NCBI GenBank assembly: GCA_947652115.1
Contig: OX393568.1
Span: 23,274,463-23,338,462, forward strand
Source of the DNA: Blastomussa wellsi
Taxonomy: Eukaryota > Cnidaria > Anthozoa > Scleractinia > Plerogyridae
Reading direction: 5' to 3'
DNA length: 64,000 nucleotides
Made by a program: the position numbers and the translations under genes. The notes beneath the pieces were generated by a model that worked only from the letters and a program-made list of their open reading frames with translations, had not been told where the DNA came from and made no database searches. How positions within the stretch are numbered: position 1 is the stretch's first letter; each line of letters starts with the position of its first letter. Positions 6,555-63,838 of the stretch are shown here, one piece after another.

Positions 6555-6589
6555 GTATAACAATATAATTTGGTTTTATCAACTAGGTT

Positions 6590-7454: not shown

Positions 7455-7974
7455 TCAGAAGCAGATTTCCTCTAATTTTAAGGAAAAATCAGAGTCGTCA
7501 TTACAAAGACGGCGAAGTCTAAGAAAGTGAGAATAAGGAATGGAATTCTTGACATGAGATGGATGTGAAGAAGAATACAACAAATAACTATGACAATCTG
7601 TGGGTTTGTAGTGCACACTGGTGCATAAACCGTTGCCTTCGATAGAAACTTTGATATCCAGGAATGCTAAGGAAGTATCGGAAATTTCCCAGGTATATTT
7701 AAGGGCAGGATGAAACGAATTAACAGCGGTTATAAATTGATCGAGATCCTCTCTGGTAGAAGAGGTAGCGCCGATACAGTCGTCAATGTAGCGACGATAG
7801 AGTTCAGGTTTTGGGCCGTTGTATTGATTGAAAAATTGGTTGTCAATGTAGCCTACGAAAAGATTGGCGTAGCTGGGTCCCATTTTGGTGCCCATGGCCA
7901 CGCCATTGATTTGTTTGTAATAATTGTTCTCGAATGAAAAACAGTTGAGTGTTAACACTAACTTACTTAACAGT
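7455..7974 (-). pseudogene. Penelope-like reverse transcriptase fragment
   Basis: Open for about 170 codons on the minus strand. Seen: NGVAMGTKMGPSYANLFVG, typical of Penelope RT, and the catalytic box YRRYIDD with the paired aspartates, followed by DTSLAFLDIKV and VHYKPTDCHSYL. Motifs of the N-terminal RT and fingers are absent because the copy is 5'-truncated. The apparent extension of this frame to 8045 comes from the host MITE, not the element. The frame ends at 7455 and homology continues in another frame. Confidence 0.88.
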
Positions 7975-7983
7975 GCTTCTTTA

Positions 7984-8130
7984 TTTGCTTTATGATATAG
8001 ATATACGCCGTAATTTATACGCCGCAAGTAAAAACAACAAAACACACACGATCGATAAACTGAAGCAATTTAATTTCGCTTTTTGACCAATCCGAGCGCG
8101 CGCAGAATCCTATCTATATTATAAAATTAT
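7984..8130. mobile_element. Hairpin MITE, right part (continues the element at 6188-6508)
   Basis: TTTGCTTTATGATATAGAT through GATCGATAAACTGAAGCAA to GCGCGCAGAATCCTATCTA matches the right portion of the uninterrupted copy at 29235-29505. Together with 6188-6508 it reconstitutes one MITE interrupted by the Penelope-like insertion. Confidence 0.7.
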
Positions 8131-12206: not shown

Positions 12207-15200
12207 CTGAAATACAAGGAACACAAATAACGTTAATGGTTTTTCACTGTAAAGCCCAAAAGATTGAGTAAAGCGACTGTTCGATCAAAATGTCTTCCAC
12301 ACCTTGTTTTAGACCAGTCATGTAAAATTTGATACCCTATTTCAGACCAGGCCGTAAACCTTTGAGGATTTGAGGAAGGCTTCAAATTTCCGTTGTTAAA
12401 GAGGCACTATCACGTCACGGACATTCATCGGATTTTTTAGTAAAATGGGCACAATATTATGAATAAGTTCTTTCACCCATACACGACATGCTCCTAGAAC
12501 ATAAAGATATGGATATCAAGCAAACTGTTTACAGAAGAGGGTGACCGTTTTCAGCAATTTTTCCAAATCACAAGGACAGAACTTGAAAAAGCCAGCCTGG
12601 CATTTTCAAGTTAAGATCTAAAGCTCCCGATGTCACTACATATTTAGCTTCAGTACACTGGAATAGTTATTTTAACAAAACTTGACAACTGTTTCTAGGT
12701 TTCCATTCGTGTAACGTTTTTGGACTGTTGAATTTTTGAAGTTATACTAGTGACAGTGTCCCTTTAAAAGATAAATAGTAATTACTGCGAATAGCATTTC
12801 CTAATTCAGACCAAATGGTCAAGTTATGAAAGTACAATAACAATAATGACGAAGATATTGATGATAGCATTTATACGGCGCACCGACCGTCCCGCGCAGC
12901 CCAACACAAGTAATGAGTAAAACTTACATCGAAGTCGTAAAAGTTTTTATTGATTGGCAGTCTCTGTACTTCACCCCTCGTGTACTTCTCAAAGTTGTGT
13001 TCTAGCCCTGTTCAAACAAGCAGCAATATAGAGTGGTAAAGTGTGACGTCACAAATAGTTAACTATTCTAAATTATGGGATTCATTGAGATCTTCAGAAA
13101 GTGTATGATGAGGAATACCCACTTGCCAAAAATCAGCATCTAATTTCAATTTGGGATTGAGAAATTGGCCCTTTTATGCTTCAGTGACTCCATACAAATC
13201 CTTGTAATTTTGTCTCTGTTCTAAACCGTTTCCAGTGGCAAGTGAGCATTCTTCATCATCTACTTTCAGAATGTCTTGGTAAATCCCATAATTTCATAAA
13301 TTTAGTTTTTGCGACGTCATCACTTTACCACTTTATTATCAAACAATAGCACATCCCGCCTTAGCCGTTCAAGTTTTTAGCCTGTCCGCAAAGCTCAGTT
13401 TATCATGCTCTCGGTTCGCTTTTGGTTTATCAACATCTTACCATGGAATCACGAATTCACAAATCACCGATTTCTTTTTCGCTTCGCGCTCGACGGACGA
13501 AGAAAAAAAGGGACTGCTCGTAGTCTGCTTACTGGTGGGAAGATAAAACTAACGTTAACAAAATCAACGCGATTAATTTCCAGAAATAAGGTAGTACGAG
13601 TTGGCTAATTTTCGTCCTCAGGGGCTCCGCAAAAAGAATTGAGACCTCTGGCCGCGTCCAGAATCGGAAGTCCGTGATTCACGGAGTCATTGTCAATTCT
13701 GACAAATCTGATTGGCTGAAAATTACAGAACGAGTATTCTCCGCATGCTCAATAGTTGGGACGGGCCAGAGATATCGTACCCAGCCGCAGACCAGAAGGA
13801 ATGTGGGCTCTGGGGACGAGAACGCAGTTGGCTATAAGTTGCCTCGATCTCTCTCATATCCAATAATCGCGATTGGAATAATTGTGAACATCTCTTCGAC
13901 ATTTTTCCAATTTTTAAGGCGAACGGCCAAATTTTTGGCCGTTGTACGGCTAACGGCTAAAATAAAATAACTAAAAATAAATCACTTTATTTTAGCAGTC
14001 CTGTGCCTATTGGCGACGCTGCAAATTAGGAAACAAATATTGACACAGAAAGTTGTTAAATATTTACAATGCGTGGAGGAGTTGAATTCGGGACCTCCAA
14101 AGACAATCCGTTTTAGTGGCAAAGAGGAGGACTTGAACCTGGTACCTCCGGTTTACAAGTCCGGCGCCCTAAACCACTGGGCCACGCTCGCCCCCTAAAC
14201 CCATTGAGACACTGTTCAAGTTCTTACCACTTTTGATGTTCTCATAAGACACACGGACGTATTCGTCCCTGTCAGGCCGTGACTGTTCGTGAATAAAGCC
14301 AATTGTGTGCATCATTTCATGAATGACAGTCCCAAGTCGTTCACACCCGTTCCCAATGGAGATTTCTTGTTTACCACCCTGTCTACCAACACTGGAGTAA
14401 CACCTACACAGAGAAATCACCGTGACATTGGGAACTAGCTCGGAACATGTACTAAGGGAATTGGTTGTAGCATGTGTGCTCAGATTCAAGAGGGGGAGCA
14501 TTGAAGAAACGGCTGCAGAAGGGATATGAACAAGACACACTACCACACAAAAAAGGCGCTGTTTCCTTCCTAACTCCCCCCCCCCCCCCTGCAAAAAAAA
14601 AAACCTTCCCAGGCCCTGTATAGTTGGTTTTCAATGGGCATAAGCGCAAGAATAAATCACAAACACATAAGAGGATTTCCATTATCGCGTAATTTTTCGT
14701 ACGGTTAAAAATAACTGGCCTTTAGTGACATGTGCAACATTAAATAGAGGAAATGTACCGACGACTGTCGTCTGCGGAAGAAGTTGAACCACCTGGAAGG
14801 ACGTAGCTTCCAGTACGCACATACCCGCGCGCGTACCTCAAAAGGTCCAACATGAAAAACTTAAACAAAGCAGAATAACGAAAAAAATAAATTCTGATTT
14901 TCCAGGGAAGAACAATCCAAGAAAGTAACAAAGAACCTAGTTTTCATTTCGTATAAAATAAGAACGTTTACGCTCACAACATAAGCTTGTAATTCTTTCT
15001 TTTTCTAACTTTTTTAATTTATTAAAGGTACATAAAAAGGATTTGAGACTTGAGCTGGGGCGAGGACATGGAGGAGTATTTGAAAAAATCGTGTGGACCT
15101 ATGGAAAAATACTGACCACACCCCTGCTTCAACCTTTTAGCAGACGTAAGACTTCCATACATTTCTTCTAATTTATTTTACGTCCGTAACTGAGCCACTT

Positions 15201-36317: not shown

Positions 36318-36780
36318 AAGGTAAGGTAAAATCTTTATTTAGACACGGTATTTCCTTCAGGACTTTACAATATAGAATTAAATAATCTAACTAGCTATCT
36401 AATTTAAATTACAAATAACTACTACAATAAAAGAAATGATAAAAACTGCTTTACAAGGAAGCCGTGTATAAAAGCAAAACAAAACTTACATAAGACTATT
36501 CAAATCATAATTCTCCATCTTAAATTTAAATTCATTAAGAGAGGGTGACTGTCGAAAATCCAAAGGCAGACTATTCCACAGTACAGCTCCGCTGCAGGAA
36601 AGAATTCTTTTACAATAGTTCGTGCGGGGCTGGGGGATGGCAAGCGAACAGTCACAGTACGTACAACTCTGACTCCGCTCCAAGTTTAGATCAGAAGTTC
36701 TATTTCTCGACCTAAACTTCCTACTCGCTCTCCGCCACTCTCCAAGCACTGGAATGAAAATAATCTCCTTGCCTTGCGAG
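36318..36780 (-). mobile_element. LINE 3' fragment (reverse-transcriptase C-terminal tail plus 3' UTR)
   Basis: Minus frame ending at 36486 reads RTNYCKRILSCSGAVLWNSL then PLDFRQSPSLNEFKFKM, the characteristic tail following RT in many animal LINEs. The 3' end has AATAAAGATTTTACC followed by TTACC-type short repeats (36318-36332), as seen in CR1/L2-like elements. The upstream RT is missing, so it is 5'-truncated. Confidence 0.75.
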
Positions 36781-37666
36781 AGAGAATAGCTGAGACAACA
36801 AGTTGACAACTACACAAAGGTACAATGGTGACCAGTGCTGGATAAGGCTCGTCGCCGACTTGGCTCAACAAGGCGATGGCCAACGCGTAACTTAAAACTG
36901 TTCCAGACAAGTACTTTGAAGACCTAAAAAACATCTGAGAAAAGTTCGCTACCATACAACCAATGACAATGTCGCCGGCACCGAGGTAGACATGTCCTTC
37001 ACGTGGGCCTATCTTGAATGTGAATATAGTTGGTAGCTCCCAAGCGTCGCTAATTTCAAAAGCTTTACACAACACAGAATCACAGTAGTCCCCTGTGCTA
37101 AATAACGAAGGGAGACCTTGAGATATCGTTTTCACCAGGCACACGTCGTAAACTACTGCAATCCACAGAAACATTTGAAGCGACGGGAAGTTTTTAAATT
37201 GCACGTGACTAACCAGCAGCGCGAAAAATGCGATCACTATATCATTTAAGATCCAACGAAGCGTCGTCGCAGTGCTCATGATCCAAATCACCGAGAAAAG
37301 TCCTCCAAAACACAGCGCCATGTACGGCTTAAACCACTGAAAAAATGCTAACAAGATACAGGAAATTACAGTTAGATGTTGCACTGAAATCATGATGTAA
37401 GGATGCGACTGGAAGAGAACAACAGAGGCGGCCATCAAAACGAAATAAATCGTGTAGAGAATCAGCCTCCGCAGTGTAGCGCCAAAGTGTGACTCAGCCA
37501 CCTCGTCATCTACTTCCATTTCTTTCACTGCAAAGACGGCATCCTCGCTATTATAAGTTCTTATTTGCCCCCTCCGCCGCGTCATCTTTCCATACCAAGC
37601 GCTTATAAACACTAACAGGCTGGCGGTTAGGTCCAAGAGCCAGAAGTTGACTAAACGATAAAGCAT
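36686..37666 (-). CDS. Signal-peptide-peptidase-like GxGD intramembrane aspartyl protease, intronless, 326 aa
   Basis: A membrane protease that would cleave type II transmembrane segments inside the bilayer, in endoplasmic reticulum or endosomal membranes. Seen: TM1 near 5-24; several hydrophobic spans between 65 and 265; catalytic YD at 173-174 (WIAVVYDVCLV); catalytic GAGD at 229-232 (VYLGAGDIVIG); and PAL at 276-278 (YPALVTIVPLC), the three signatures of presenilin/SPP proteases in order. The preceding WILNDIVIAFF matches the WxLxDxLG region of SPP/SPPL. It is shorter than typical SPP (about 370-400) and lacks introns, so it may be an expressed retrocopy. ATG at 37666 has an A at -3. The last about 20 codons overlap the LINE fragment in another frame, so the native C-terminus has probably been replaced. 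Confidence 0.88.
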   Translation of the reverse strand: MLYRLVNFWLLDLTASLLVFISAWYGKMTRRRGQIRTYNSEDAVFAVKEMEVDDEVAESHFGATLRRLILYTIYFVLMAASVVLFQSHPYIMISVQHLTVISCILLAFFQWFKPYMALCFGGLFSVIWIMSTATTLRWILNDIVIAFFALLVSHVQFKNFPSLQMFLWIAVVYDVCLVKTISQGLPSLFSTGDYCDSVLCKAFEISDAWELPTIFTFKIGPREGHVYLGAGDIVIGCMVANFSQMFFRSSKYLSGTVLSYALAIALLSQVGDEPYPALVTIVPLCSCQLVVSAILSRKARRLFSFQCLESGGERVGSLGREIELLI

Positions 37667-38575
37667 GGTTTCAGCACTGCCACGTAGTCGAAGTGATCAA
37701 GCCGATAAAATATCTGCGTGATTTTCAACCGTTATTTTGACCGTCTATGATCGATTTATCGCGTTACACCTGCTACACACGCTTTGCTCGAGTCTTCGAC
37801 ATTTGACGAACGGAAAAGTAATTTTTACGGTTGTCGTTTCTTTCGAATTAAACTTATTTACTTAGTTCCCAAGTAACCGTTTTACTTATTGAAAAATCTC
37901 AGTTGTCCTTATGCCTTTGCCTTTTAAGGCTTTCCGTTTTCAGCGTTACCATTTGACTTGTTAGATGAACCAATTTTGAAATTAACTTGTTTAATAAATC
38001 TTGCTCACCGAATTTTGATTAGCATTGACAAGCCACCTGTGAACAGGTGCGGGAGCTAGGACCAATTTTTTTTTCTCTCTTTCCTGCAAGCTAACCGGTC
38101 AGCCGTGATGAAATCCAGGATTAGGGCAGTTATTTAACTTTTCAGTAAGGTTTCCTGGCTATATTTTCTGTTCTCCAGTTTTATATCAACTGATTTCAAA
38201 CTCCAAAAAATATAGGCATCAAGAACACTTTTTTACAAGAACAATTAAACATTTTGTGTTGGAAATTTTCCCCACGCCCACGTTCAATATACTGAAGTTG
38301 AGAAAACAACATTAAACTGAGGGAAATGGCGCACTGTTTTCCAGCGCTTGTGTCCATGCATGTGGCTTTAGGTAAACTTTTTATTCTTTAGGCAGAACTG
38401 ATATGAATTCGTCGAGATGCCAGATAAAAGCTCATGCTGTCATAACGACGAGTTCCGTATTTGCGCAAAAGTTGACAGTCTAAATAAGGCAAATTTAAGC
38501 CCTCGATCCACAGATTGGAAAACCAGATCCAATTCGTCAATGCGCCGCCGTAAAGTCTTAAGCCAGGATCAATAG
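37667..38575. other. Upstream region of the SPP-like gene, no gene recognised
   Basis: AT-rich. No TATA box or other element could be assigned confidently, though the promoter of the minus-strand protease gene must lie here if it is expressed. Confidence 0.35.
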
Positions 38576-50954: not shown

Positions 50955-51027
50955 ATGGCACATTTGCATTTGCGGATGCCGATTGTGTCGCTTGTAGTTA
51001 TTCTGACTTCCCTCTGCCCGACGCGAG
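50955..51027 (+). CDS. Ig/chitin gene exon 1: signal peptide
   Basis: ATG in a good context (CAAGATGG). Encodes MAHLHLRMPIVSLVVILTSL then CPTRG, a typical signal peptide. Donor GCGAG|gtaagt, phase 1. Confidence 0.85.
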
Positions 51028-54000
51028 GTAAGTGTTTCGATGATGCCCACAGTTCTTTTAAAGTGATTTTGCCCTGTGGCGGATACTTGCTGTAGGTAGG
51101 GCTGTGAATTAGTGCGCAGCAAACTGACGTTAATTTCTAACGGAGCTTGCACGCAGGTACCTGAAGCGTGTTTATGATGCGGCAAATTAGCGCGCTCATT
51201 ATTGACTATGAAGTTTAAGTACTATGAGTTCATAAAACTTGTTGTTCTTCTACCTCTTGAGTGCTCAGATCATTGTTCACTTTTATTTAAAGTAAGACCG
51301 TGGGCCCAGATTTTCATTCTCGACTTTTAACGTGAGATGTCATACTGAAGCACCACTTCGTGCGATGCCACGGGTTGTCACTTTCAAAGTTCATGTCATT
51401 AATGTATTGTTTTATTATTCATATTTAAAATATATCTGGTGAACTAATTGTAAGTTGGCAGCTGTCTTTATCTCGCATCTAATTAACTCATTTCTACAGT
51501 AAAATATCACTGCTGTGTGTTGATTTTCATCGATTTAGTGACAAATGATTTCACAACTCCGTTTATCATTTGGAACCTGAATTTTGGTCATGTTTTGAAC
51601 CTATTGAGTTTAGAAGGCTTCAGCTAAACCTAAATTACGTGTTTCAACTTCTCTTATGTAAGAGTTATTAATTTTGAATGCTTTATCTTACATTATTCAT
51701 GCAAAACGTAACATGGTTATATCACAAATGAACTTTTAATAATTATTGGCAGTCGTGCCAATTTCGGCTCGACTGTTCTGAAACGAATACAATACTTTCG
51801 GAAATTCTCTTAACTGCTAAAAGTTTATGAGATCTCATCACACCACCATGCGACTTTTTTTTTCCGTTTAGCTGAGGCACAGAGGGAAGTCAGAGAAAAA
51901 CATGATCCTATTCATCGATAGCGAACGGGACATTATTAGCAGGGAAAAAACGCTGGCTGTGATGTTTCTATCCGCACGTGATAAATTGTACGCTCGAATG
52001 ACATAATTTTCTACATCCGGTCAAGACTTCGCATTCACAAATGTTTGCGTGTGCTTCCGAATGTCGCGATTTGGCGTTCTTGTGAAAAAAAAATCCTGTG
52101 GTTTTCTATTCTGAACTTAATTGGAACGACATGCTCTTTTGTAAGGAAACTCGTGATTATGCATTTACGTGGATTCAAACATTACGTTCCTGTTGAAATC
52201 AATGTTTTCATTGAACAATAATCTTCATTATAAAGGAGAGAAGAAAACAAGAGAAGAATCAAGCAGTCATTAATTTTTCTTCTTTATATTCAAAACGAAC
52301 AAAAATACACGATTTTCTCGGACGTCAGGTGTCGAAACTTCTCAGCAGTCTACGTGCCATTTGTCAAAATAAAAATTTGACAAATTCAACGAGAAAGCAA
52401 TTTGGGTCCGGTTTTTCTATGCTAAAAAATAAAAATAATAATTATTTATTTTTCTCAACATTGTTAGTAAAATAATTGAAGAACATTATTTGAACAGTCA
52501 GCTGACGTTCTTGATTGCTTTTACCATAAAGAAAAATAAACACACATTTTCCCAGTCACATATAATTTGATCAAAAATATTTACCAAAATGAATCCCCAG
52601 CTGTAACTCAGATTTACTCAAAATGGCACAAGAATAAAAAGAAAAGGGGATTTTCTTACTTTCTTTTATCGGCGAATTAAATAAAACTGAGCAAATGCAT
52701 TTAATTTTATAAAGACTTCAAATCAATATTTCTAAAAGCGTTATATGACAGTGTTATTTACTTTACATCAACATAACAATAAATTGCTCATTTTCCAAAA
52801 ATATTGATTAATTTTTCTCTGGTGTATTTAGGTATACATAGGTAAATATTGCTTTCCTTGTAGCTTCAAATTAAGAAAAATAAGTTTCTACAACATCAGT
52901 CAAATTAAAATTTCTCCTTTCTCATTTTGTAATCTTTGGTAAATTATTTACCTGCAAGGAGTCCCTTCAGGCATTTTTATTTTTCCTCTTGGCAGTGTTT
53001 ATCAGAATGCCTGAAAGAACCCATTAAAGAAAACATTAATTACTGTAATAAGTATGTTAAAAAAATTATCTCAATTGATTTTTTTTATCAACATCATTCT
53101 ATGCAACCACACTTCAATAAAAATTTATTCCCAACTGTACCCTGCATGTACATTTACAGAGAGGATATTACATGGCCGCATGGAAATACGAAATTTTTCT
53201 TCCAGTGAACCTCCGTTTAAGACATTCCACAGAAATAGAACCTGTACTGAGATTTTTGTCGAACTTCGCCTATTGACTGTTTGTGCTACAAAAACTTCAA
53301 TTTTGAAATAAAAGTGTGGGGCCCCATGCTCATATAGGGGGCAACATTAGCATTAAAATTAACAATAATTCTATGTTTTGTAGTCTTCACAGGTGCTTCA
53401 TTTAGTCTCCTTAATGATCCACCATCACGATTCGTAATTGTTGTCCGTGGATACTCTGTAGACATTGACTGTCGATTAAATGATCCATCAGTTGACGTGC
53501 ATCTGATGAAAGAAAAGACTGGATCACAGCAACTACTTGAGAGAGTTCCAAATGGAGTCAAAGTTACGCAGAGTGGACAAATATTTACTGTAAACAATTT
53601 TGGCAGCCAAGATAATGGGAAATATTCTTGTAAAGTTCAGGCTACAATAATAAGCATAGGGACATTTTTGTCTGTACGTTACAACACAGGTAATTATAAG
53701 TGTGTTAATAATAATGACTTGTAGGTTGCAATTTCTTAGCAAGATCAAATTCACTTTTTTACTTACAAGTGTCTTTGAGGTAGAAAACAATGCAGTTGAA
53801 CAGTGTTTGCAATAGACTGGTGATATTAATAAATTAGCAGGTAAATGAAGCCAGGGTGCTTTTGTCAATGTCAGTGGTTGTGCCAGATTTGTTTCAATAA
53901 CATTTAGTATGTGTTCATGTAATGTAGATGCAAGCTCATACATGAATTTGTATCTTCAATTTGCAAAATCTCAGAACTTTTCAATTGATCAGTGAGTTTT

Positions 54001-57000
54001 AGCACATCTGGCTTTGTTCACCCATTTGACTTGCCGAGATCTCGGTAAGATCTCACCCGAATGCCAAGATTTCAGTGAGATCTCGCCGAGATCTCGCCAA
54101 GATCTCACCAATGCAGAGATCTTGCCACCTTAAGATTCATGGCAAGATCTCGGCTAGCCATATGAAAACCTTGGCAGCCAAAAACTCGCAGAGAATCTCG
54201 CCGAGATCTCAACAAAAATTTTGTACAAGTAGGGGATAACATTTCATTCCTCCATTTAAAATGGCTGCATGCAAGGCTAATTTGTTCATGGCCATTATGC
54301 TGCCCAAATGTTGTACAAATTGACCAAATATTGAGGAATTGTTGAACAGTGTACCTGTATTTCCGTGATAACAAGTTATCGCCATTGATTTCACAGATAG
54401 GTATATTTCTTCACATTCTGTACTTCCAAAGAGCATCTCAAGAGCTGAAGGAGAAAGTGCCACTTTTTCCTGCAATGTTACTGGAAAAGGCATCCAAAAT
54501 GTGGAATGGTATAAAGACAAAAAGAAGCTTTCCAGTACATTTGATCAAAGTGGCAACAGCTACATTAGCGACCTTGAATTATCAGCGGTTACTATTTCAC
54601 AAGGTGGTGCATTCGAGTGTCGAACAACAATTGTTCCCTCAAGGTACAAGGGCTACAAAGGAAAAACAGGAATTCTTTCTGTTACAGGTACATAATTATA
54701 AACTATATAGGCACCTGGCTAATTCATGAATTTGTAATAATTACATTTTTAGCAATATATAATCAGTTGACTGATCTGAGTCCAGGTTATGAATAATAAT
54801 GTCAAAGATCTTAAAATTCTGCTAGCTTGGAAACCGTCTTAATGGACATGTCTAGTTAATTAACCAAAGCAACTGTTTTTGCTGCATGGCATTTCAATGA
54901 AAGAAAATGCCTTTGCTACATGTACTGTAGGTACAGTACTATCTGACATACATGTCCACAAGCTCCATATTCATTGTACAGTAAATCTCAATGGATGAAA
55001 AAGAAAACCTACCAATCTCCAGTGTGTGGCTTATTTAAAAAATGTTAGACAATATTTTTTTCATTTTAGTGATTGTACACTGCCTGGAGTCATTTTTGTT
55101 GGAATCTGAGTGTTCTAAAACCAAAAGTGGTTTTTTAAGTATAGTCACAGGCAAAACCATTTAGGGTTACTTTTAACACTCAGTTGAATATATCACACTG
55201 TTATTGATAGTTTTTATTTTTATTTAATAAATAATATAACAACAACAATGAGATAATAATACTAATAATAATTATAATAATAATAACTGTAATAATAATG
55301 TGATCACGACAATGATGATGATAATTTGACAATAATAACAATTTCCCTAAAATTACAAATAGTTCATGTAAATATAATGATCATCACTAATAGTTTTATT
55401 TTGTTTACATTTCAGAATTTCATTTTCTTGCTAAGAAGAGGCCATATCAAAGGCTCTTTGTGAACGACTCAGTGACACTTAATTGCGAGACAAACGATCA
55501 AAAGGCATCCTCTAGTTTATGGGTGAAGAAAGATGCAAATCCACCGCAAAAAATTGTTCCAAATGGTAGAACTGTCACAAGGCGAGGCAATAGATTTTAT
55601 TTCAATAGTAGTCTAGCACTGGATAACGCTGGAACGTACATATGTAAAGCTACTTTGTCAATCATAAACAAGACTATTGAAAAAGAGATTACAAGTCTGT
55701 TGGTCTTCACAGGTGAGGAACAAACTGAATTATAATTGCAGTACCAGTGCGATGCCCTGACAACTGAGCTAATTGAAGCCACACATTGGGAGCGAGGTCA
55801 ATTTACGGTGTATTGAGTTCAATTTGTTAATAAATTGGAAATTCACTACGATGATCATTTCCCACTTTCAAACTAAATTATATTTTGCCCTCTTTTCTGT
55901 TGGATGAATGAGTTTTTCAAGGGATAGACTTACTCAGCAATGCCTACAGGAAGAACCTCAGGCCTCAGAAAGATTCCCTTATTTTCTGGCCCATCCTTCA
56001 TCCTTTGCATTTTCCCAGTTCGCCTAGTAAGTTGCTGAATATTATTAAATATTGTTCATGTATATAATAATTGAAATGTGTATAATTATCTGTCTTTACC
56101 AGGAGACAACAGAAATCCTCAAGCCCAAGTGTATCCATTTGTGAAAGAGGCTATTCGAGGACAGGACTTGAATTTTTCCTGTCAAGCTCCTGGTGATGGC
56201 ATCTCATTGAAGTGGTTTAAAAATGGTGTTGCTGTTCCAAGTTATCAAACACTCAGACAGCCAATCAAATCCATAAAAGGATTTCCTTTTAATGAAAAAA
56301 TTCTGATGTTAAAGAAAGTCTCAAAAAGAGATGATGGCAACTATACTTGTGTTGTTACAACGTCTCAACAACCAGGATATTCCAACAAAGTCACTGCGAG
56401 TCTTTCAGTCAAAGGTATGTTTGGTGAGGGGTAACCTGTTAACGAGGGTTGCCTTAAGGACGTTCACGCTAATTGTTTCTGAGCATCGTTACTGCGCGCG
56501 AATTTGTCACACCATGTCATCTATCGAGCGCACGCGCTGAGAAAAAACAAAGGGCCAGAAGCCGTTTTGTTGCTTTGCTGGTAATTTACTCTCTTAAATG
56601 GTCGGTGACCCCTACTTTTTTTTCTATGAACTGATTTTATTTACAATCTCAGCAGAATGTCAACAAATGAACAAAAAATCAATGTGGGAAGTTTAAAAAT
56701 TTTAAGGCTTTTTGCCCACAGGACATTGAATCCTGCCATCTTGCGGCTGTTAGGCAAGTGCAAATGTGGTTGCTAAATGCAAATTTTTTCTTTAAGGAAC
56801 CACACCAATGGAGTAAATTCACTTTATGGGTCCATTTAAGCAACATTTGGCAGAGACGCGTTCATTTCAAAGATTTATTTGCAATATTTTGTGCTTACAG
56901 ACACTAGCCGTATTCGCCAACGAAGCGCGTTTATTCAGATTTAGGGTGTTCTTCTGGGCATGTTATCTCCAAGTCGGTGAGCCCCAATGTTTTTTACATT

Positions 57001-59428
57001 TCTGACATCACTTACTTGTTATCTTACAGTGGTGAGAGTTTCAGAAAAAAATCAGTGGTAGAAAATTTTTGCATGAACATCCTTAAGTTAATTCTTTTGA
57101 GACAAACAGATGAATAGAGGGCTGGGTAATCATAACAGTTGCTTTTTAGGTGTGTCATCACTGTCACCCTACCTGATTTCTTCCAGGAAGATGTATTGTT
57201 GTTATTATTTTGGTAATCAATAATATAATTAAGAAATAGAGGACTTTTGCTGTGTTTACATGGCCTCATTTAAGCACGAGGGGGTTGGGGAGAATTTGAG
57301 ACAGTTATGCAAACCTGAGATGCATTCGAGGGTTTGCATAACTTTCGAGAATTCTCCCAAACCCCCGAGTGTTTGTACACGAGGCTTTCATTTATGTTAC
57401 GCACGGAACTAAAACATCACAACCGTGTTTACACACTCTCATCTAAACACATGCACCTATCAACCAATGAGAACACATGTAGTATCTCTGTTATTTTATA
57501 ATTGTTGATTATTGAACCTTGCTAGAGACCAGGGAAAAGTGGAAAAACAAATATTGGATTATGTGGACTGTGTTCTCTATTTCAGAGTGTCTTGACCCCA
57601 GTGGGAAGTTTGCTGATCCATCTGATGCCTCTGGCTACTTTGAATGCATACAAGGGTCTGCAGAGAAGAGAACTTGCCCCACTAAACAAGTATGGGAACA
57701 AGTGCAAAAGATCTGCAAGCCATTACTATGTAAGACTAAATTATAGTGGAATTTTTTAATCAAACTGTAGCATTAGATAAAACTCTCTCATTTTCCACTA
57801 TGGGGTTTAGCATAATTAAGGTATTCACAGAGCGCAAGTAACTCAGCATCTTTTACCTCTATAGTTTTTACATTTATTTTCTCAAACTGGGTGCATGCAG
57901 CTTTTACAGATACGGATACAGAAACACTTTATTACGACTCCTCTATACGGGGCTATTCTGCCGTATTATGCTATAATAAGAAATATGTATTATCTATGAG
58001 TGCGGCTTATACGCAAGTTTTCCTGATACATTTGCCTTGCCTTTTTATAGCATGGCTAGTATTCCACCACAGGGGAATTCATTTCGTCATCCCCGGAGTG
58101 GACTTCTTGTTGGACTGTGGGCTAAATGCTCCGAATGTCTCAGTTGAAATATACAGAAAAAAGATAAGTGACAAGAGATTTGAAAAAGTCAACCCACTGA
58201 CTGATCCATTTGTTGAACAGAATGGCCAGAAGTTTTCAATAGAGCTCCCAAATAATGGCAAAATGACTTACAAATGCAGGGCTACTGAACAGGGTAGTAA
58301 CACTGTTGTTGAGAAGGAAGTGATGCTTGACACAGCTCCAGGTTTGGAGAAACATTGATTTTTATCCACATTCACATTTATCAGAAGTTTCCCTATTCAG
58401 ACAAACCATGAAATGTAATAACATTATCATTACAGGAACTTACATGTACACTGCATCCTGGGCAACATTGTCATCCAACATGTGATGCAATAAGTGTTGT
58501 ATAGCATTGTTGCAAGTTCATAGTATCAGTTTGCATATTACCACTCAAACAGATTGTTGCAAAAAATAAACAAATTCCAAAAAAATATATGACCACTCAT
58601 GTTTTAGGCTGCAACAGTGTGTTTTCATAAATTAAGTTGAACTCAAAAACATTAATACAAATTCATACTGATATTAACATGTTGCACAAATCAAAGTTGA
58701 ACTCACAAAACATGTTGCTGCAACTTACAACAACAATTATAGGACACTAGAGGAATTTCTGTTCTTTTGTTATTGTTATTGTTTGTTATTGTTATTGTTA
58801 TTGTTGTTGTTTTTGTTGTTGTTATTGTTGTTGTTGTTGTTGTTGTGCTGGACTCCAGGTTTGAGTCACCCTTGGTCATGCGATCATTGTAAATATGCTT
58901 TATGTCTGTTTTCAATGGCAGATTTTCAGCAAAATGTTTATGTTGAAACTATTCCAACATGTTCCCATGGTCCACTGGATATAACTGATTCCATCGAAAT
59001 CAAGTGCCATGTGTTTCACTATGGAGATGTCAAATGGTTTAAGGTAGACACAACTTCAAAGGTGGCCCAGGAAATAACAGACGTAAGAGTGAAACAAAGT
59101 GGACCACGGTATGTTAATACGGGCCACTTGGAGAAAAACAGCACTTTGATACTTCATAACGTAACACGAAGTGATGCAGGAGCTTATGTTTGCAGCAAAC
59201 ACAATGGACATAACAAAACAGCTAATGTAACTGTTTTCATCGATGTTGCAGGTAAATCTCTACTTAGAAAGAAATCATTCAGGGCACTGTTAGACAATGG
59301 CATTGGGCATTATGGAATTTGGCGCTATATGAATAAATGTTATTTATATTATCATCGTTATTATTATTATTGTTGTTATTAATAAGACTTTTCTCGTCAT
59401 CTCGCTTTTAGTACTGTAGTCATCGTAG

Positions 59429-59489
<61 letters not shown>

Positions 59490-62400
59490 TATTATTATTA
59501 TTATTATTATTTTAATAGTAGAACGTTTTCACAAGAAATTTTCTTCCCGAATTTGTCAGTTCCATTCGATTTTTCTCCTGAAATTTCGGGATTTTCGATT
59601 GAATGGTTCGCCTTTCGGAAATTCACCCCCTTCACCATTCACCACAGATTTTCCGGAAACTTTCCCAGGAAATTGATCTACGTACCTGATTAGCTGTAGT
59701 GTGTTTCACCACTGAGGTTTCACCGACAAGTTCATTTTCAGGCAAATCAAACTCATTTTCATTTGAATCGTTTTGCATGAGGGCTCGCCTTGAAACAGAG
59801 GCAAAAGACAACTATGGAACGGTCTATTTGTCAAGACGCAACTTACCTACATATCGCGGTGTTCGCGAATGCAAATGACGTCGTCGTTTCCCGCTCATTG
59901 CTGTCTATCACTTTCAAAGCACTGTTGCCCTCAATTCTCTTCTTAGGTCCGATGTATTTTGACTAATTTCTGCAGCGCCGAAAATGTCTTCTTCGACTAT
60001 TAAATTATGACAAAAAATGAAGCAAGTTGCCATCGTTTTGAGTCGTTTCTATCGTTTTGCGCAACTGTTGGAAAGCAATTCACGTGATACGTTTAAACCA
60101 ATCAAGAGAAACTGGTTGGATAACCCAGGCAAGCTTGATTGAATACGTCAAAAAGGTCACAAAAAACGGACTTTAGGTTTCTATGTTATTAAAAATACGC
60201 ACAACGAATTTTCCGTATATCTCAGTCTGTTTTTGGTACCTTTTTGTTAACGGTAAGTATACCTTTGCAACGTTTTCCAGAACCTTCACCTGCATCTGCC
60301 CTAATGAGGCCACCGCAAGCTGTGATGGAGGGCTCCAATGCCAAATTTTTCTGTACTGTAAGTGGGTCTCCACGTCCAACGGTGACATGGCTGGGGGGGA
60401 CAGAAACTGTTGCCGTGTGTGACGGAAAGCAATATGGCAAGTGTACCCCCATAGACCGTTCGAAATACAAATCTAGTTGGCGAGACGAAAGAACATGTAT
60501 GGTGCAACACTCGAGTGGACCGACTAGCGGCAGATGGACGAGCTGGCTGAGTGTTTTGGACAGTCGGTATCCAGCTGATGCTTTGAACTACAGCTGTGTG
60601 GTTGATAATGGCTTGGGTAAACGACAGGAACAAGTTGCACAACTTAATATCAACGGTGCGTCTTACTGCTTATTGTAGGTCTACCAGGTTTGAGAGTATA
60701 AAATTGTATCTAAGGGCCTTTTGTTTTGTTGTTGTTGAGTAAATAATCACGATAGCCACGGATGTGAATTTAGAAATTATGCTTTTTCAGGAGTAGGAAA
60801 ACTGGAGAAATACCTTTTCCGAGAGCTAGGCGAGGACAACAACAACCTCGATCTACACACATAATTTTGGTACCTGCCCGGTCACATTGGTGCCGGGAGG
60901 CGAGCGCTCTCACCACTGCGCCATTTCTGCCCATTGTCATAATTTTTTTTGGCTGCCCTTGCAAGCCACCTGCTACGTTTGCAAATCGTTTGATATTCTA
61001 TTGCCGGAATGTCTAAGAAGTGAAACTCAAATGAAGTTTAGAGGCATGCATGCAAAGCACTGGAAGTCTGTTGCCAGCAGCAGGCTGGTGATATGGATTT
61101 TTCATGACTATTTCAGGATCACGCCCGCGTCTTTGCTGCATGCATGCAAATTTCTCTGAAATTATGTGTACTTGTCTTTAAACTCGCAAGGGTCTGATCT
61201 CAACATAGAACAGAATAACAACAAGCAGAAATAAGAACTGGATTGCACAAAAATGAAACATCTTCTGACAAATCCTTCTCCAACCCCATTCATGCAACGC
61301 ATCAGTTTTAGTGGTAGTAATTGTCTTGACTATCATTTTACAACACTAGGCGAGTTGAGGGGGGCGGGGGGGGGGGCAAACGTGTGAAAAATGTTGTGCG
61401 CCTTTATTCTGTGCTAGGCTGAAACTGGTTTTCCTGTTTTTTGTAGTGGACCCTGTGTTGATTACAAATACCAACAATAGAATCGAAAAGCCCATTGTCA
61501 CTAAAGGTGAAATAGAGAAGTTAAATTGCTCGACAGAACGAAGCAATCCCCCAGCTATCTTCAGTTGGCTCTATCAGGTATTAGAGTGTACAAATGCCTC
61601 AACCTGCATACCCAAAAGCTGGAATCCAATCCCAAGCGTTATTGGAGAAGTTGATCAACGTTCTCCTTTCTCCAGCATTCTTACTGTGCCAGCGAACATC
61701 GACAAGATGTATTTCAACTGCACTGCAACAAATCCTAACACCGGCGGGAGGGACTTCAAGGTGTACCAGTTTGTCCGAACAAGTAAGTAATTTTATATAG
61801 GCTAAATGAGTTCCAGAAATATTCAGCGTACATAGAAGACCTGCAGTGTCTTGGTGTTATGGATAGAGAGATTAAGCATGACGTTATGCTGCAAACGGGA
61901 AACGCGAGCTTGTCTTTCATTTTGCAACCTTTGAATCTAATTCTTAAATAAATATCTCAGAAAAACAGGAAAAAATTCACTCGTTTACAAAAAAAAAACG
62001 ACTTATTTCCGCGTACATGCACCTAACGGCAGATCGCAACAGAGAGATTAAGCATGACGTTATACGGGAAACGGGAAACGCGAGCTTGCCTTTCATTTTG
62101 CAACCTTTGTATCTAATTCGCGTACTGGCAGATTGCGGGAAAAAAACGTCATGCTTAATCTGTCTATCATCCATATTTGCCGCATATTTTCCGCACTTTT
62201 GACTCAAATCAAAAGTTCGACAAAGCCAATGTTTCGTGCCGTGCCGTCTGCGATGTTAGCTTAGTCTGCCTCTACCTCGATCAAAAGTCATCCAGGTCTT
62301 CTCTCAGTATCGCTTGCGCAGTAACACAGTTTGCTGGTTTGAGGTGAGTTGGAAAGAAATTAGCAAGATTTAATGCCATCTTGTTCTTGTTATACATCAG

Positions 62401-63838
62401 AAAGATTGGAACCTACCGAGAACCTGATAGTCAAGCCTGCTTCTTCCGTCACACGGAATGTGGGTGAGAATATTACCTTGCGATGCGAAGCTTCGGTTGG
62501 CGTCTTCAAGGGAGCACCAAGGTGGAAAAAAGATCAAAAGTTAGTACGGAACCAGCCAGGAAAGATGATTCTTCATGAATCGATGAAGGTGAAGTCTGTA
62601 AGTGAACTACACATTCAAAATGCCAAACCCGAGGATGGTGGCCTTTATGTGTGTGCTGCTAGGAAAGTAATAGATGGTCGGGAAACTCGAAAGGCCATAA
62701 GACTGACCATCAAGGGTAAGTATATAAGGGCTACTACATTGTCAACGGCCATAACTTGTCTTCGCTCAACGGAAAACCAACAATAATGGTTTAATTTTGT
62801 TACCCAAGTCATGCCAAGTCTATATGACTGCACTGAAACCATTTACTGACGTTTGTTGTTGCGGAAGGCGAAGATTGAAGTGGATTGAATTTAAATTCTC
62901 AAGCCATCTCCTGAAAAAAATTGGAAACCAACTATGGTTTGCTCTCCCTGCTAAATTTTCATTTGATACCTTCTTCGGAATTCTGAAGGAACATTTTTTT
63001 GTAGAAGTATAAGTATTAAGCAACGACTTTAGTACTGTATTGACTTGACGTACTTCAAAATCACCGTGATACACTTTCCCTTAAACGTGGGAGTCCACTT
63101 GATTCTTTGTTGCAGCATTGTGTTGCGTTGTTGAGGAAGATAATTCACTCTCACAGTGCCTGTTTCCACTCAGATGCATACTTGGATACCGGAGACTATC
63201 GGGTGTGATAGACAAGCATCTCCTCCAGGGTGTGGGGGAGGGGGGTTGGTAGAATACTCGTAGCCGCTTGAACTCACAGCGCTTTACTAGTTGACTTAAA
63301 GCTGCAATCTTATCTAAATGTAGTGTATCAAAATGTCAAAATGAACGTGTATGAGATTTTTGTTGATACATTGTACTTCATGCTTGTGGTCCTGTCGCGT
63401 TTAGGAATAATTTAGGCCGCAATAATTCACTTCTGATGTAATAGGGGCACGTCAAAAAAGCAACGACATTTTAACTTAATTTCCATACAAACTTTATTGC
63501 AGAGCTGGCCAAGCCCACTGTCCTGATTACTTCGAATGTGACCACAACTAAAGGTCAGCGGGTCAAACTGTTTTGTAACGTCACTGCAAATCCACAACCA
63601 AAAGAAGTCACGTGGACGATAAACGGAAGAAAACTTGAACCCAACCTAACCAAGGTTGACGACTGCGGGCAGCTCAAAAGTGGTTTCTACAAAGTGCAAG
63701 ATAAAACTCTCTCTTCTAGCGGAGTGTGGCGATTATTTGTTTGCTCCGCAACCAATGACCAACACACTGGTTTTTATGAGTGTCAAGCAACGAATGTTGA
63801 GGGAAACGCCACTGGCACAACCTACTTAAACGTTTTGG
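50955..63838 (+). CDS. Immunoglobulin-superfamily protein with embedded chitin-binding (CBM14) module; 12 exons, incomplete at 3' end
   Basis: Exons: 50955-51027, 53393-53689, 54397-54687, 55416-55712, 56103-56414, 57586-57729, 58051-58341, 58922-59251, 60281-60655, 61447-61782, 62401-62715, 63503-63838. They join to 1132 codons without a stop. Layout: signal peptide 1-24; Ig1 25-123; Ig2 to 220; Ig3 to 319; Ig4 to 423; CBM14 424-471; Ig5 to 568; Ig6 to 678; Ig7 to 803; Ig8 to 915; Ig9 to 1020; Ig10 to 1132. Every intron is phase 1, each domain one exon. Most Ig domains show Cys, Trp and D-x-G-x-Y-x-C. The gene continues past the window, so a membrane anchor or further domains are unknown. 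The protein is secreted or cell-surface. Ig plus CBM14 recalls protochordate VCBPs, which bind microbes, but those have two N-terminal V domains and a terminal chitin module. Adhesion or matrix roles are equally possible. Confidence 0.88.
51028..53392. other. Ig/chitin gene intron 1, 2.4 kb, nothing recognised
   Basis: AT-rich, no further Ig-like exon or definable repeat found. Short open frames at 52936-53311 lack domain features. Confidence 0.45.
53393..53689 (+). CDS. Ig/chitin gene exon 2: Ig domain 1
   Basis: Acceptor cttcacag, donor gtaatt. Begins ASFSLLNDPPSRFVIVVRGY; Cys in VDIDCRL and in DNGKYSCKV. The Trp of strand C is absent (VHLMKEK), so this is a divergent Ig fold. Confidence 0.85.
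54032..54209. repeat. GAGATCTCG-rich degenerate tandem repeat in intron 2
   Basis: Many spaced copies of GCCGAGATCTCG, GCCAAGATCTCAC and CAGTGAGATCTCG. The motif is nearly self-complementary and about 10-14 bp in period, with irregular spacing. Confidence 0.8.
54397..54687 (+). CDS. Ig/chitin gene exon 3: Ig domain 2
   Basis: Acceptor atttcacag, donor gtacat. ESATFSCNVTG, VEWYKDKKK and GGAFECRTT give the Cys-Trp-Cys triad. Confidence 0.88.
55205..55345. repeat. AT-rich AAT/AAC microsatellite stretch in intron 3
   Basis: Imperfect runs of AATAATAAT, AACAACAAC and GATGATGAT. Confidence 0.85.
55416..55712 (+). CDS. Ig/chitin gene exon 4: Ig domain 3
   Basis: Acceptor catttcag, donor gtgagg. 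DSVTLNCETN, SLWVKKD and DNAGTYICKA. Two N-glycosylation sequons (NSS, NKT). Confidence 0.9.
55740..55800 (-). mobile_element. tRNA-like SINE head fragment
   Basis: Minus strand: TTAGCTCAGTTGTCAGGGCA then TCGCACTGGTACTGC, the 5' half of a tRNA with a recognisable A box. The B box is missing, so it is a truncated SINE. It starts about 30 bp after exon 4. Confidence 0.6.
56103..56414 (+). CDS. Ig/chitin gene exon 5: Ig domain 4
   Basis: Acceptor tttaccag, donor gtatgt. GQDLNFSCQAPG, LKWFKNG and DDGNYTCVV; a textbook I-set-like pattern. Confidence 0.93.
56415..57585. other. Ig/chitin gene intron 5, with a hairpin
   Basis: Contains the hairpin element at 57255-57392 and otherwise sequence without recognisable features. 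Confidence 0.45.
57255..57392. mobile_element. Hairpin MITE, about 138 bp
   Basis: ATGGCCTCATTTAAGCACGA...GGTTGGGGAGAATT...GTTATGCAAACC pairs with GGTTTGCATAAC...GAATTCTCCCAAACC...TACACGAGGCTT. Non-coding. Confidence 0.72.
57586..57729 (+). CDS. Ig/chitin gene exon 6: chitin-binding type 2 (CBM14/peritrophin-A) module
   Basis: Acceptor tatttcag, donor gtaaga. ECLDPSGKFADPSDASGYF then ECIQGSAEKRTCPTKQVWEQ and VQKICKP. This follows the CBM14 pattern C...G.FADP....YF.C..G......CP...vW......C. Of six usual cysteines, numbers 2 (Ala here) and 6 are missing. In tachycitin-type folds these two pair with each other, so one whole disulfide appears to be lost. Aromatic residues for sugar contact remain. 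Confidence 0.85.
58051..58341 (+). CDS. Ig/chitin gene exon 7: Ig domain 5
   Basis: Acceptor ctttttatag, donor gtttgg (weak). VDFLLDCGLN and GKMTYKCRA give the Cys pair; the strand C Trp is absent (VEIYRKK). An alternative acceptor at 57900 would add 50 in-frame codons with no stop; I prefer 58051 because the size then matches the other Ig exons. Confidence 0.8.
58765..58848. repeat. (TTG)n/(TTATTG)n microsatellite
   Basis: Runs of TTATTGTTATTG grading into TTGTTGTTG just upstream of exon 8. It produces poly-Leu open frames that are artefacts. Confidence 0.93.
58922..59251 (+). CDS. Ig/chitin gene exon 8: Ig domain 6
   Basis: Acceptor tcaatggcag, donor gtaaat. DSIEIKCHVF, VKWFKVD and SDAGAYVCSKH. 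N-glycosylation sequons include NKT and NVT. Confidence 0.9.
59428..59513. repeat. (ATC)n followed by (ATT)n microsatellite
   Basis: About 20 uninterrupted ATC units running into about nine ATT units in intron 8. Confidence 0.95.
60281..60655 (+). CDS. Ig/chitin gene exon 9: Ig domain 7 with a long insert
   Basis: Acceptor gttttccag, donor gtgcgt. GSNAKFFCTVSGSPRPTVTW and ALNYSCVVDNGLGK. At 125 codons it is the longest domain; the extra loop carries additional Cys residues (VAVCDG, GKCTP, RTCMV). Confidence 0.93.
60790..60935 (-). mobile_element. tRNA-derived SINE (GGCGCAGTGGTGAGAGCG head)
   Basis: Minus strand: AATGGCGCAGTGGTGAGAGC, then TCGCCTCCCGGCACCAATGT, a degenerate B-box region, and a body with GTTGTTGTTG and GGTATTTCTCCAGTTTTCC. 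Located in intron 9. Confidence 0.7.
61447..61782 (+). CDS. Ig/chitin gene exon 10: Ig domain 8
   Basis: Acceptor ttttttgtag, donor gtaagt. IEKLNCSTERSNPPAIFSWL and KMYFNCTATNPNTGG. An extra Cys pair, ECTNASTC, lies in the central loop, as in domains 7 and 10. Confidence 0.9.
61860..62160. repeat. Local duplication and inversion around AGAGATTAAGCATGACGTTA
   Basis: AGAGATTAAGCATGACGTTA followed by CGGGAAACGCGAGCTTG and TCATTTTGCAACCTTTG occurs at 61868 and again at 62041 in the same orientation. The complement ACGTCATGCTTAATCTGTCT occurs at 62146. It sits in intron 10 and has the look of a small transposon with an internal duplication. Confidence 0.75.
62401..62715 (+). CDS. Ig/chitin gene exon 11: Ig domain 9
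   Basis: Acceptor atacatcag, donor gtaagt. ENITLRCEAS, APRWKKD and EDGGLYVCAARK. Confidence 0.92.
63120..63245 (+). mobile_element. Relic of the 38975-type SINE body
   Basis: TTGTGTTGCGTTG..., AATTCACTCTCACAGTGCCT, CACTCAGATGCATACTTGGATACCGG and CATCTCCTCCAGGG follow the order of the 38975 element. The tRNA-like head is missing. Confidence 0.6.
63503..63838 (+). CDS. Ig/chitin gene exon 12: Ig domain 10
   Basis: Acceptor tttattgcag, donor gtaagt, phase 1, so at least one more exon follows beyond the window. QRVKLFCNVTANPQPKEVTW and HTGFYECQATNVEGN. Extra Cys in VDDCGQ and LFVCSA. Confidence 0.93.

What the first reader, a model, noticed from the sequence alone, without database searches (positions are those of the whole stretch)
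50955..63838. Ig-superfamily protein with a chitin-binding module buried among ten Ig domains
Seen: signal peptide, four Ig-like exons, a CBM14/peritrophin-A exon, then six more Ig-like exons in one open, phase-continuous model. Known: protochordate VCBPs combine Ig V domains with a chitin-binding domain and act in gut immunity. Inference: this may be an independent cnidarian combination used to recognise chitin, mucus-bound microbes or a chitinous matrix. The order (Ig-CBM-Ig) differs from VCBPs.
Basis: partly seen in the sequence, partly recalled or inferred. Interest (0 to 1): 0.78.

Follow-up and report, generated by a model that had tools for sequence, protein, structure and literature searches.

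The report
Receptor kinase with a chitin-binding-like module
The window holds the outer half of a cell-surface receptor, probably from a coral or a close relative, that pairs a long string of immunoglobulin domains and a chitin-binding-type module outside the cell with a tyrosine kinase inside it; it may let the animal turn contact with a sugar-rich material into a signal, but what it binds is unknown.

Summary
In detail: twelve phase-1 exons (50955-63838) form one open frame with a signal-peptide-like start, four Ig exons, a CBM14/peritrophin-A exon (57586-57729; 37.9 bits, cut-off 22.1) and six Ig exons. But this is not a secreted VCBP-like protein. In the assembly the gene runs on past the window: an eleventh Ig exon, a transmembrane segment and a complete tyrosine kinase (23 exons, 1830 aa, modelled from DNA and relatives). 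A second Ig-CBM14-kinase gene follows in tandem. Relatives in Stylophora, Porites and Nematostella carry the module at a matching place. On a kinase tree the CBM14 receptors fall in one supported clade (99/96). The predicted fold is CBM14, but the module keeps only four of the six usual cysteines and lacks the aromatic next to C5 that grips chitin in Avr4 and chitotriosidase; its two best sequence matches among solved structures, EHEP and Der p 23, are reported not to bind chitin. A Trp just after the module is, however, kept. Best reading: an FGFR/VEGFR/PDGFR-group receptor kinase whose outer region gained a CBM14-fold module for docking to a glycan or matrix. Chitin sensing is possible, not shown. 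My paper searches found no description of it.

The parts
50955..51027 (+). Exon 1: ATG and hydrophobic signal-peptide-like start (MAHLHLRMPIVSLVVILTSLCPTRG)
   Evidence: first Met of its open frame; aligns with starts of P0001-P0003; no signal-peptide program was run
53393..53689 (+). Exon 2: Ig1 (V-like)
   Evidence: Pfam ig 29.1 bits alone; alternative acceptor 53384 would add 3 residues
54397..54687 (+). Exon 3: Ig2 (I-type)
   Evidence: whole-protein scan; 47% to P0001
55416..55712 (+). Exon 4: Ig3 (V-like)
   Evidence: whole-protein scan; 62% to P0001
56103..56414 (+). Exon 5: Ig4 (I-type), directly before the CBM14 exon
   Evidence: whole-protein scan; 57% to P0001
57586..57729 (+). Exon 6: CBM14/peritrophin-A-fold module, phase 1-1, 144 nt, four cysteines (C1, C3, C4, C5)
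58051..58341 (+). Exon 7: Ig5 (divergent V-like; no Pfam Ig hit alone); begins S-W, the Trp kept after the module in relatives
58922..59251 (+). Exon 8: Ig6
   Evidence: Pfam Ig_3 32.5 bits alone
60281..60655 (+). Exon 9: Ig7
   Evidence: 54% to P0001
61447..61782 (+). Exon 10: Ig8
   Evidence: weak alone (Ig_2 19.6 bits, cut-off 27); 51% to P0001
62401..62715 (+). Exon 11: Ig9
   Evidence: whole-protein scan; 48% to P0001
63503..63838 (+). Exon 12: Ig10, last exon inside the window; splices in phase 1 to the Ig11 exon outside it (64205-64477 in continued window coordinates, locus L009)

Best explanation
This is the outer half of a single-pass receptor tyrosine kinase: signal peptide, four Ig domains, a CBM14-fold module, seven more Ig domains, a transmembrane helix, a kinase of the FGFR/VEGFR/PDGFR group and a tail with tyrosines. 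SHOWN by sequence: this architecture (the part right of the window as a homology-guided model), its recurrence in relatives, a kinase with the standard motifs, and a predicted CBM14 fold. INFERRED: the distal part, Ig4-CBM14-Ig5, docks to an extracellular glycan or matrix component on mucus, cuticle, glycocalyx or skeletal matrix; a repetitive ligand would gather receptors so that the kinases phosphorylate each other; the membrane-near Ig domains are the part most like a growth-factor receptor. My odds: CBM14-bearing receptor kinase, 0.97; module works as a glycan or matrix docking site, about 0.6; that ligand is chitin or chito-oligomers, about 0.25.
For: Twelve open phase-1 exons in the window and eleven more to the right give 1830 aa without a stop. 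Pfam kinase 302.9 bits plus an Ig domain in the C-terminal part; best PDB match of relative P0003's kinase is FGFR1 (347 bits). P0001, P0003 and P0004 sit on contigs barely longer than the ORF (6133, 5953, 5007 nt for 1826, 1834, 1569 aa), so intron-free, and join Ig4-CBM14-Ig5-TM-kinase in one frame. CBM14 is over Pfam's cut-off in P0001-P0004 (22.9-29.3 bits) and in P0120, P0121, P0123, P0126 (27.3-32.7 bits). Kinase tree: CBM14 receptors in one clade, 99/96. A tandem paralogue has the module too. The CBM14 exon is about as conserved as the Ig exons (50% against 33-62% identity to P0001), and a Trp 6-13 residues after C5 is present in 12 of 12 (the spacing in the tandem gene is unsure).
Against: Nothing here shows any ligand, expression or signalling. 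The CBM14 lacks C2, C6 and the aromatics flanking C5 in 12 of 12 sequences. The two best solved matches by profile are reported not to bind chitin. In Nematostella P0122 the module scores 20.7 bits, under Pfam's cut-off of 22.1. The module's place relative to the Ig count differs between the two subfamilies (after Ig4 in A, after Ig2 in B), so a fixed geometry is not conserved. Gene A beyond 63838 is a model without transcripts of this species; no TM predictor was run on it (hydropathy was computed for four relatives).
Confidence: 0.6

Rival explanations
1. A special, bolder case of the best reading: a chitin-sensing pattern-recognition receptor kinase. CBM14 binds chitin or chito-oligomers of fungi, crustacean prey, or the animal's own chitin; the polymer clusters receptors and switches on the kinase, as LysM receptor kinases do in plants (plant comparison recalled, from no call).
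Against: In CfAvr4, Trp-Cys-Asp-Tyr around C5 contacts the sugar (PMC6128652, passages), and a chitotriosidase construct without Trp465/Asn466 loses binding (PMC4844120, passages). Family members have no aromatic at C5-1 or C5+2 (12 of 12). Der p 23 and EHEP share the fold without chitin binding (PMC10619976, passages).
Confidence: 0.22
2. The CBM14 fold is only a compact spacer or a protein-protein contact; the receptor is an ordinary growth-factor-type receptor whose ligand binds the Ig domains.
For: Loss of the C2-C6 cysteine pair and of the aromatics flanking C5 in all 12 family sequences examined; change of module position relative to Ig count between A and B; non-chitin-binding proteins of the same fold.
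Against: Invariant residues across two paralogues and conservation like that of the Ig exons speak for a kept surface or fold; the only member of the clade without it in the tree is P0127, a partial gene model.
Confidence: 0.35
3. A secreted or membrane-tethered VCBP-like immune effector.
For: Ig domains plus a CBM14-type domain; V-like Ig1.
Against: Transmembrane segment and full tyrosine kinase follow in the same frame; module is internal; phase-1 exons, whereas VCBPs have a C-terminal CBD and frame-0 splicing (PMC2632668, passages).
Confidence: 0.03
4. The join is a gene-model error: an Ig protein (exons 1-5) and a separate CBM14/Ig receptor gene.
For: No transcript from this species; exon-intron model inferred from DNA.
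Against: Intron-free contigs of three relatives carry the join in one frame; phase 1-1 at the boundaries; the same local order Ig-CBM14-Ig in the tandem gene and in six subfamily-B proteins.
Confidence: 0.01

Closest known systems
Stylophora pistillata protein named 'Fibroblast growth factor receptor 2' (P0002) and its relatives P0001, P0003, P0004 (subfamily A)
   Same: Same domain order with CBM14 after Ig4 (P0004 starts inside Ig1), TM, kinase and tail; 91% kinase identity of gene A to P0001; 59.7% over 1847 aligned columns for a draft of gene A that still lacked one 41-nt exon and began exon 14 late
   Different: P0002 lacks the Ig8 exon; their CBM14 scores are lower (22.9-29.3 bits for the whole protein, against 31.5 for the window's)
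Stylophora 'VEGFR2-like' (P0126), Porites lobata P0121, Nematostella 'hemicentin-1 isoform X2' (P0122), P0120, P0123, P0125 and the tandem gene right of the window (subfamily B)
   Same: Ig-CBM14-Ig receptor kinases, four-cysteine module, one kinase clade with A (99/96)
   Different: CBM14 follows Ig2 instead of Ig4; the tandem gene has 14 Ig exons in my map against 11 in gene A; 29% identity between genes A and B
VCBPs of amphioxus (PMC2632668, abstract start and passages)
   Same: Ig V-type domains plus a chitin-binding domain (CBM14 type in VCBP1 and 3)
   Different: Two V domains and a C-terminal CBD, frame-0 exons; no kinase is part of the described make-up
Cnidarian and vertebrate FGFR/VEGFR/PDGFR-type receptors (e.g. 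Rhopilema P0117, Hydra P0134, human KDR P0155)
   Same: Ig ectodomain, related kinase
   Different: No CBM14 detected by the local profile (P0117 and P0124 also by Pfam)
Der p 23, EHEP, chitotriosidase CBM14, Avr4 (solved structures)
   Different: Not part of a receptor; chitotriosidase and Avr4 bind chitin through aromatics the module lacks; Der p 23 and EHEP reported not to bind chitin

Membership tests
CBM14 / peritrophin-A (Pfam PF01607) | Profile score above curated cut-off | tested here: met
   37.9 bits against 22.1 for exon 6 alone, 31.5 in the whole window protein
CBM14 / peritrophin-A (Pfam PF01607) | Fold | tested here: met
CBM14 / peritrophin-A (Pfam PF01607) | Six cysteines paired C1-C3, C2-C6, C4-C5 (as in EHEP, PMC10619976) | tested here: not met
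   Only C1, C3, C4, C5 in 12 of 12, no cysteine within 12 residues after C5. [quoted passage not shown] So only the four-cysteine form, as in Der p 23, is claimed
CBM14 / peritrophin-A (Pfam PF01607) | Binds chitin | not testable with these tools
   Aromatics flanking C5 absent in 12 of 12, a Trp 6-13 residues after C5 present in 12 of 12; needs a binding assay
Ig-type receptor tyrosine kinase (FGFR/VEGFR/PDGFR group) | Ig ectodomain, one TM, intracellular tyrosine kinase | tested here: met
   TM and kinase lie right of the window; TM read by eye in gene A, by hydropathy in P0001-P0004
Ig-type receptor tyrosine kinase (FGFR/VEGFR/PDGFR group) | Intact catalytic motifs (GSGAFGQV, VAVKSLK, HRDLAARN, DFGLA) | tested here: met
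   Read in the gene A translation; activity itself not testable
FGFR proper | Kinase grouping with bilaterian FGFRs; FGF binding | tested here: inconclusive
   FGFR1 is the best PDB match of P0003's kinase, but the bilaterian proteins listed by the N-lobe search are mostly VEGFR2 and the tree held no bilaterian FGFR; FGF binding not tested
VCBP | C-terminal chitin-binding domain after two V domains | tested here: not met
   Module internal; seven Ig, TM and kinase follow
VCBP | Make-up of signal, two V domains and CBD only; splicing frame 0 | tested here: not met
   TM and kinase present; the first 16 exons end in phase 1; frame 0 for VCBP exons from PMC2632668

The most novel reading that the evidence does not exclude
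An animal receptor tyrosine kinase that senses chitin or a related polymeric glycan directly: one gain of a CBM14 module before anemones and stony corals split turned a growth-factor-type receptor into a glycan-sensing receptor, later doubled in tandem, used to read fungi, prey, mucus-bound microbes or the animal's own chitin and skeletal matrix.
Probability: 0.25. Interest if true: 0.9.

Novelty: new variant of a known kind. Interest (0 to 1): 0.68.

Why it matters
If the module binds a glycan, this would be an animal receptor that links recognition of a structural polysaccharide straight to tyrosine-kinase signalling. How animals sense chitin is still debated (recalled, from no call), and anemones make chitin while stony corals carry the genes for it (PMC10216261, passages). 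Even without chitin binding, it is a recurring domain combination in a much-studied receptor class that my searches found nowhere described; in databases it goes under names such as FGFR2, VEGFR2-like and hemicentin-1. A Nematostella relative with the module makes it testable in a laboratory anemone.

Tried and rejected
VCBP-like secreted protein: rejected once the TM and kinase exons were found. Chance or artefact: rejected by Pfam score, fold and conservation. Exon spliced into the wrong gene: rejected by relatives' intron-free contigs. Profile search A1 (103 hits) gave only the four relatives already known plus other Ig or kinase proteins; the kinase N-lobe search (1013 hits, best 120 listed) found the second subfamily.

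Other CBM14 exons of the genome (23 matches; only the best candidates are scored by that tool): on contig C12 only genes A and B match, so none was found at the other C12 kinase matches (near 0.5, 2.9 and 19.2-19.6 Mb). The nearest other pair is on C8, CBM14 at 8.14 Mb and kinase at 8.20 Mb, 62 kb apart, and was not examined. The two CBM14 exons that I opened with 10 kb around them (L016, L017) showed no match to these receptors beyond the CBM14 itself. The odd features of the receptor module are not peculiar to it: at C5+2 I could read 21 of the 23 exons (L006 and L017 were not caught by my pattern), and 8 of 21 have W or Y there; C2 is also missing in L004, L016, L035, L038 and L039. A first script for this gave partly wrong readings because strands were not handled and was replaced. 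Weak fold matches 7t6a, 7p4l and lower rows were set aside.

Not tested: expression, alternative splicing, a soluble isoform, selection (no DNA of relatives), the species' name, octocorals (the one octocoral named in my tree, Xenia P0138, falls outside the CBM14 clade; lists are partial).

Literature: word searches (and 25 for Der p 23) over a library that lacks most subscription journals. By title and start of abstract no listed paper describes a receptor tyrosine kinase with a chitin-binding or CBM14 domain. I looked into eight papers, by passages found with search terms only: PMC10619976, PMC7806929, PMC8974781, PMC4844120, PMC8662651 (no occurrence of chitin or CBM in its main text), PMC10216261, PMC2632668 and PMC6128652.

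Full report
OBSERVATION. Exons 50955-51027, 53393-53689, 54397-54687, 55416-55712, 56103-56414, 57586-57729, 58051-58341, 58922-59251, 60281-60655, 61447-61782, 62401-62715 and 63503-63838 have GT-AG borders, all splice in phase 1, and read 1132 codons without a stop. Pfam finds nine Ig_3 stretches and one CBM_14; exon 6 alone scores 37.9 bits (cut-off 22.1), exon 7 alone has no Ig hit. Exon 7 resembles Ig1 (z 12.7) and keeps two cysteines at Ig-like spacing.

WHAT IT IS. The first homology search (17 hits) put four receptor tyrosine kinases of 1569-1834 aa on top, not VCBPs: P0001 (51% identity over 100% of the window protein), P0002 ('Fibroblast growth factor receptor 2' of Stylophora pistillata), P0003 and P0004. 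All four carry, in the same place, a CBM14 above Pfam's cut-off (22.9, 23.0, 24.4 and 29.3 bits) and a kinase. Three of them lie on contigs of 6133, 5953 and 5007 nt for ORFs of 1826, 1834 and 1569 aa, so they are intron-free. I read this as transcript-derived; the tool does not say so.

THE REST OF THE GENE. The window is C12:23274463-23338462 of a 367.8-Mb assembly. I fetched 60 kb to its right. Relatives match exon after exon. The finished model of gene A has 23 exons, 1830 aa and no internal stop: Ig11 64205-64477, TM and juxtamembrane 65832-66116, kinase exons 66759-70306 including a 41-nt exon at 69779-69819, tail 71227-71832 (continued window coordinates). An automatic first pass missed that small exon and chose a later acceptor for exon 14; I corrected both by reading the sequence. 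The C-terminal part scores 302.9 bits against the kinase profile and has an Ig domain. Kinase motifs GSGAFGQV, VAVKSLK, HRDLAARNVL and DFGLA are intact.

A TANDEM PARALOGUE. From 79057 to about 98659, on the same strand, lies a second receptor gene, with its own CBM14 exon (matched at 80918-81064) after two Ig exons, and a kinase. The first matched exon starts 7.2 kb after gene A's stop; its signal-peptide exon was not modelled. My draft of it is rough (some borders wrong or uncertain, the CBM14 exon cut short and one small kinase exon missing in the script's version), but it matches P0120 and P0123 at 56% over about 2040 columns, and gene A at 29%. In Stylophora the A protein P0002 and the B protein P0126 list the same longest-contig length (1,521,465), which suggests that the pairing is kept there too. 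In the whole genome 23 CBM14 matches were found; on C12 only these two, so none at the other C12 kinase matches.

HOW OLD AND HOW OFTEN. Subfamily B (P0120, P0121 Porites, P0122 Nematostella, P0123, P0125, P0126 Stylophora) has the module after Ig2. Pfam scores of the five that I scanned: 27.6, 27.3, 29.8 and 32.7 bits (P0120, P0121, P0123, P0126) and 20.7 for P0122, just under the cut-off; P0125 has it in the precomputed list only. A profile built from eleven of these modules finds it in 10 of the 232 proteins held then, all of them from its own building set (so no independent proof), and gives one strong match in the window's six frames, the rest at E 0.02 or worse. A kinase tree of 43 rows (41 chosen by me from the 232 proteins, plus genes A and B) puts all CBM14 receptors in one clade (99/96). 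The label needs two changes on the tree, because P0127 (Actinostola) lies inside the clade without it; that is a partial gene model whose distal region is missing. The sister group is Rhopilema, Clytia and two rows of unnamed source, without CBM14; the branch joining them has 94/88, just short of the tool's mark for good support. So the simplest reading is one gain, before the A/B duplication and before anemones and stony corals split; an older gain with loss in medusozoans is not excluded. Octocorals were not resolved.

DOMAIN MAP. Domain-against-domain scores (100 shuffles each) show A Ig7, 8, 9, 10 and 11 matching B Ig8, 9, 12, 13 and 14, with B Ig10-11 as a likely copy of 8-9; A Ig6 to B Ig7 is weak. 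The distal part is built from V-like/I-type units (labels mine, from the score clusters): A is [V I][V I]-CBM14-[V], B is [V I]-CBM14-[V][V I][V]. The module thus sits after an I-type and before a V-like Ig in both, though the count of Ig domains before it differs.

MECHANISM. Shown: architecture, recurrence in relatives, kinase motifs, predicted fold. Inferred: the distal Ig4-CBM14-Ig5 block docks to a glycan or matrix; a repetitive ligand gathers receptors, and the kinases cross-phosphorylate. Cnidarians make chitin (PMC10216261, start of abstract and passages), so a self-ligand is as likely as a microbial one.

NOVELTY. The sequences of relatives are public but filed as FGFR2, VEGFR2-like or hemicentin-1. 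I found no paper on such a receptor (searches, in an open-licence library). It is a new domain combination within a known receptor class, and a real candidate for glycan sensing by a receptor kinase.

Noticed in passing
right of the window, continued coordinates 79057-98659 (L010-L012): Second Ig-CBM14 receptor tyrosine kinase gene in tandem on the same strand; CBM14 exon matched at 80918-81064.
   Followed up: yes
window 1445-2602 (-): 386-aa open frame of a rhodopsin-family GPCR (Pfam 7tm_1, 150.8 bits).
   Followed up: partly
window 36689-37696 (-): 336-aa open frame with a signal peptide peptidase match (Peptidase_A22B, 38.3 bits).
   Followed up: partly
window 6586-8069 (-): Likely retroelement remains: weak reverse transcriptase and GIY-YIG matches, both under Pfam cut-off.
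   Followed up: no
window 14116-14630 (-): tRNA-Thr (14116-14192) overlapping the end of an open frame with an astacin metalloprotease stretch (97.4 bits).
   Followed up: no
P0149-P0154: Receptor-kinase-like proteins, five of six from Hydractinia, with a NIDO domain (PF06119) and a kinase related to these receptors: another unusual cnidarian make-up.
   Followed up: no
L004 (G000:C10:24956000-24956146): CBM14 exon that, like the receptor modules, lacks C2 and has the GLVW motif, but ends in C-D-W; a possible close relative or donor of the receptor module.
   Followed up: no
P0122: Nematostella receptor tyrosine kinase filed in NCBI as 'hemicentin-1 isoform X2'.
   Followed up: partly
G000:C8, CBM14 near 8.10-8.14 Mb and kinase match at 8.20 Mb: A cluster of CBM14 exons 62 kb from a tyrosine kinase match; whether they share a gene was not examined.
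   Followed up: no
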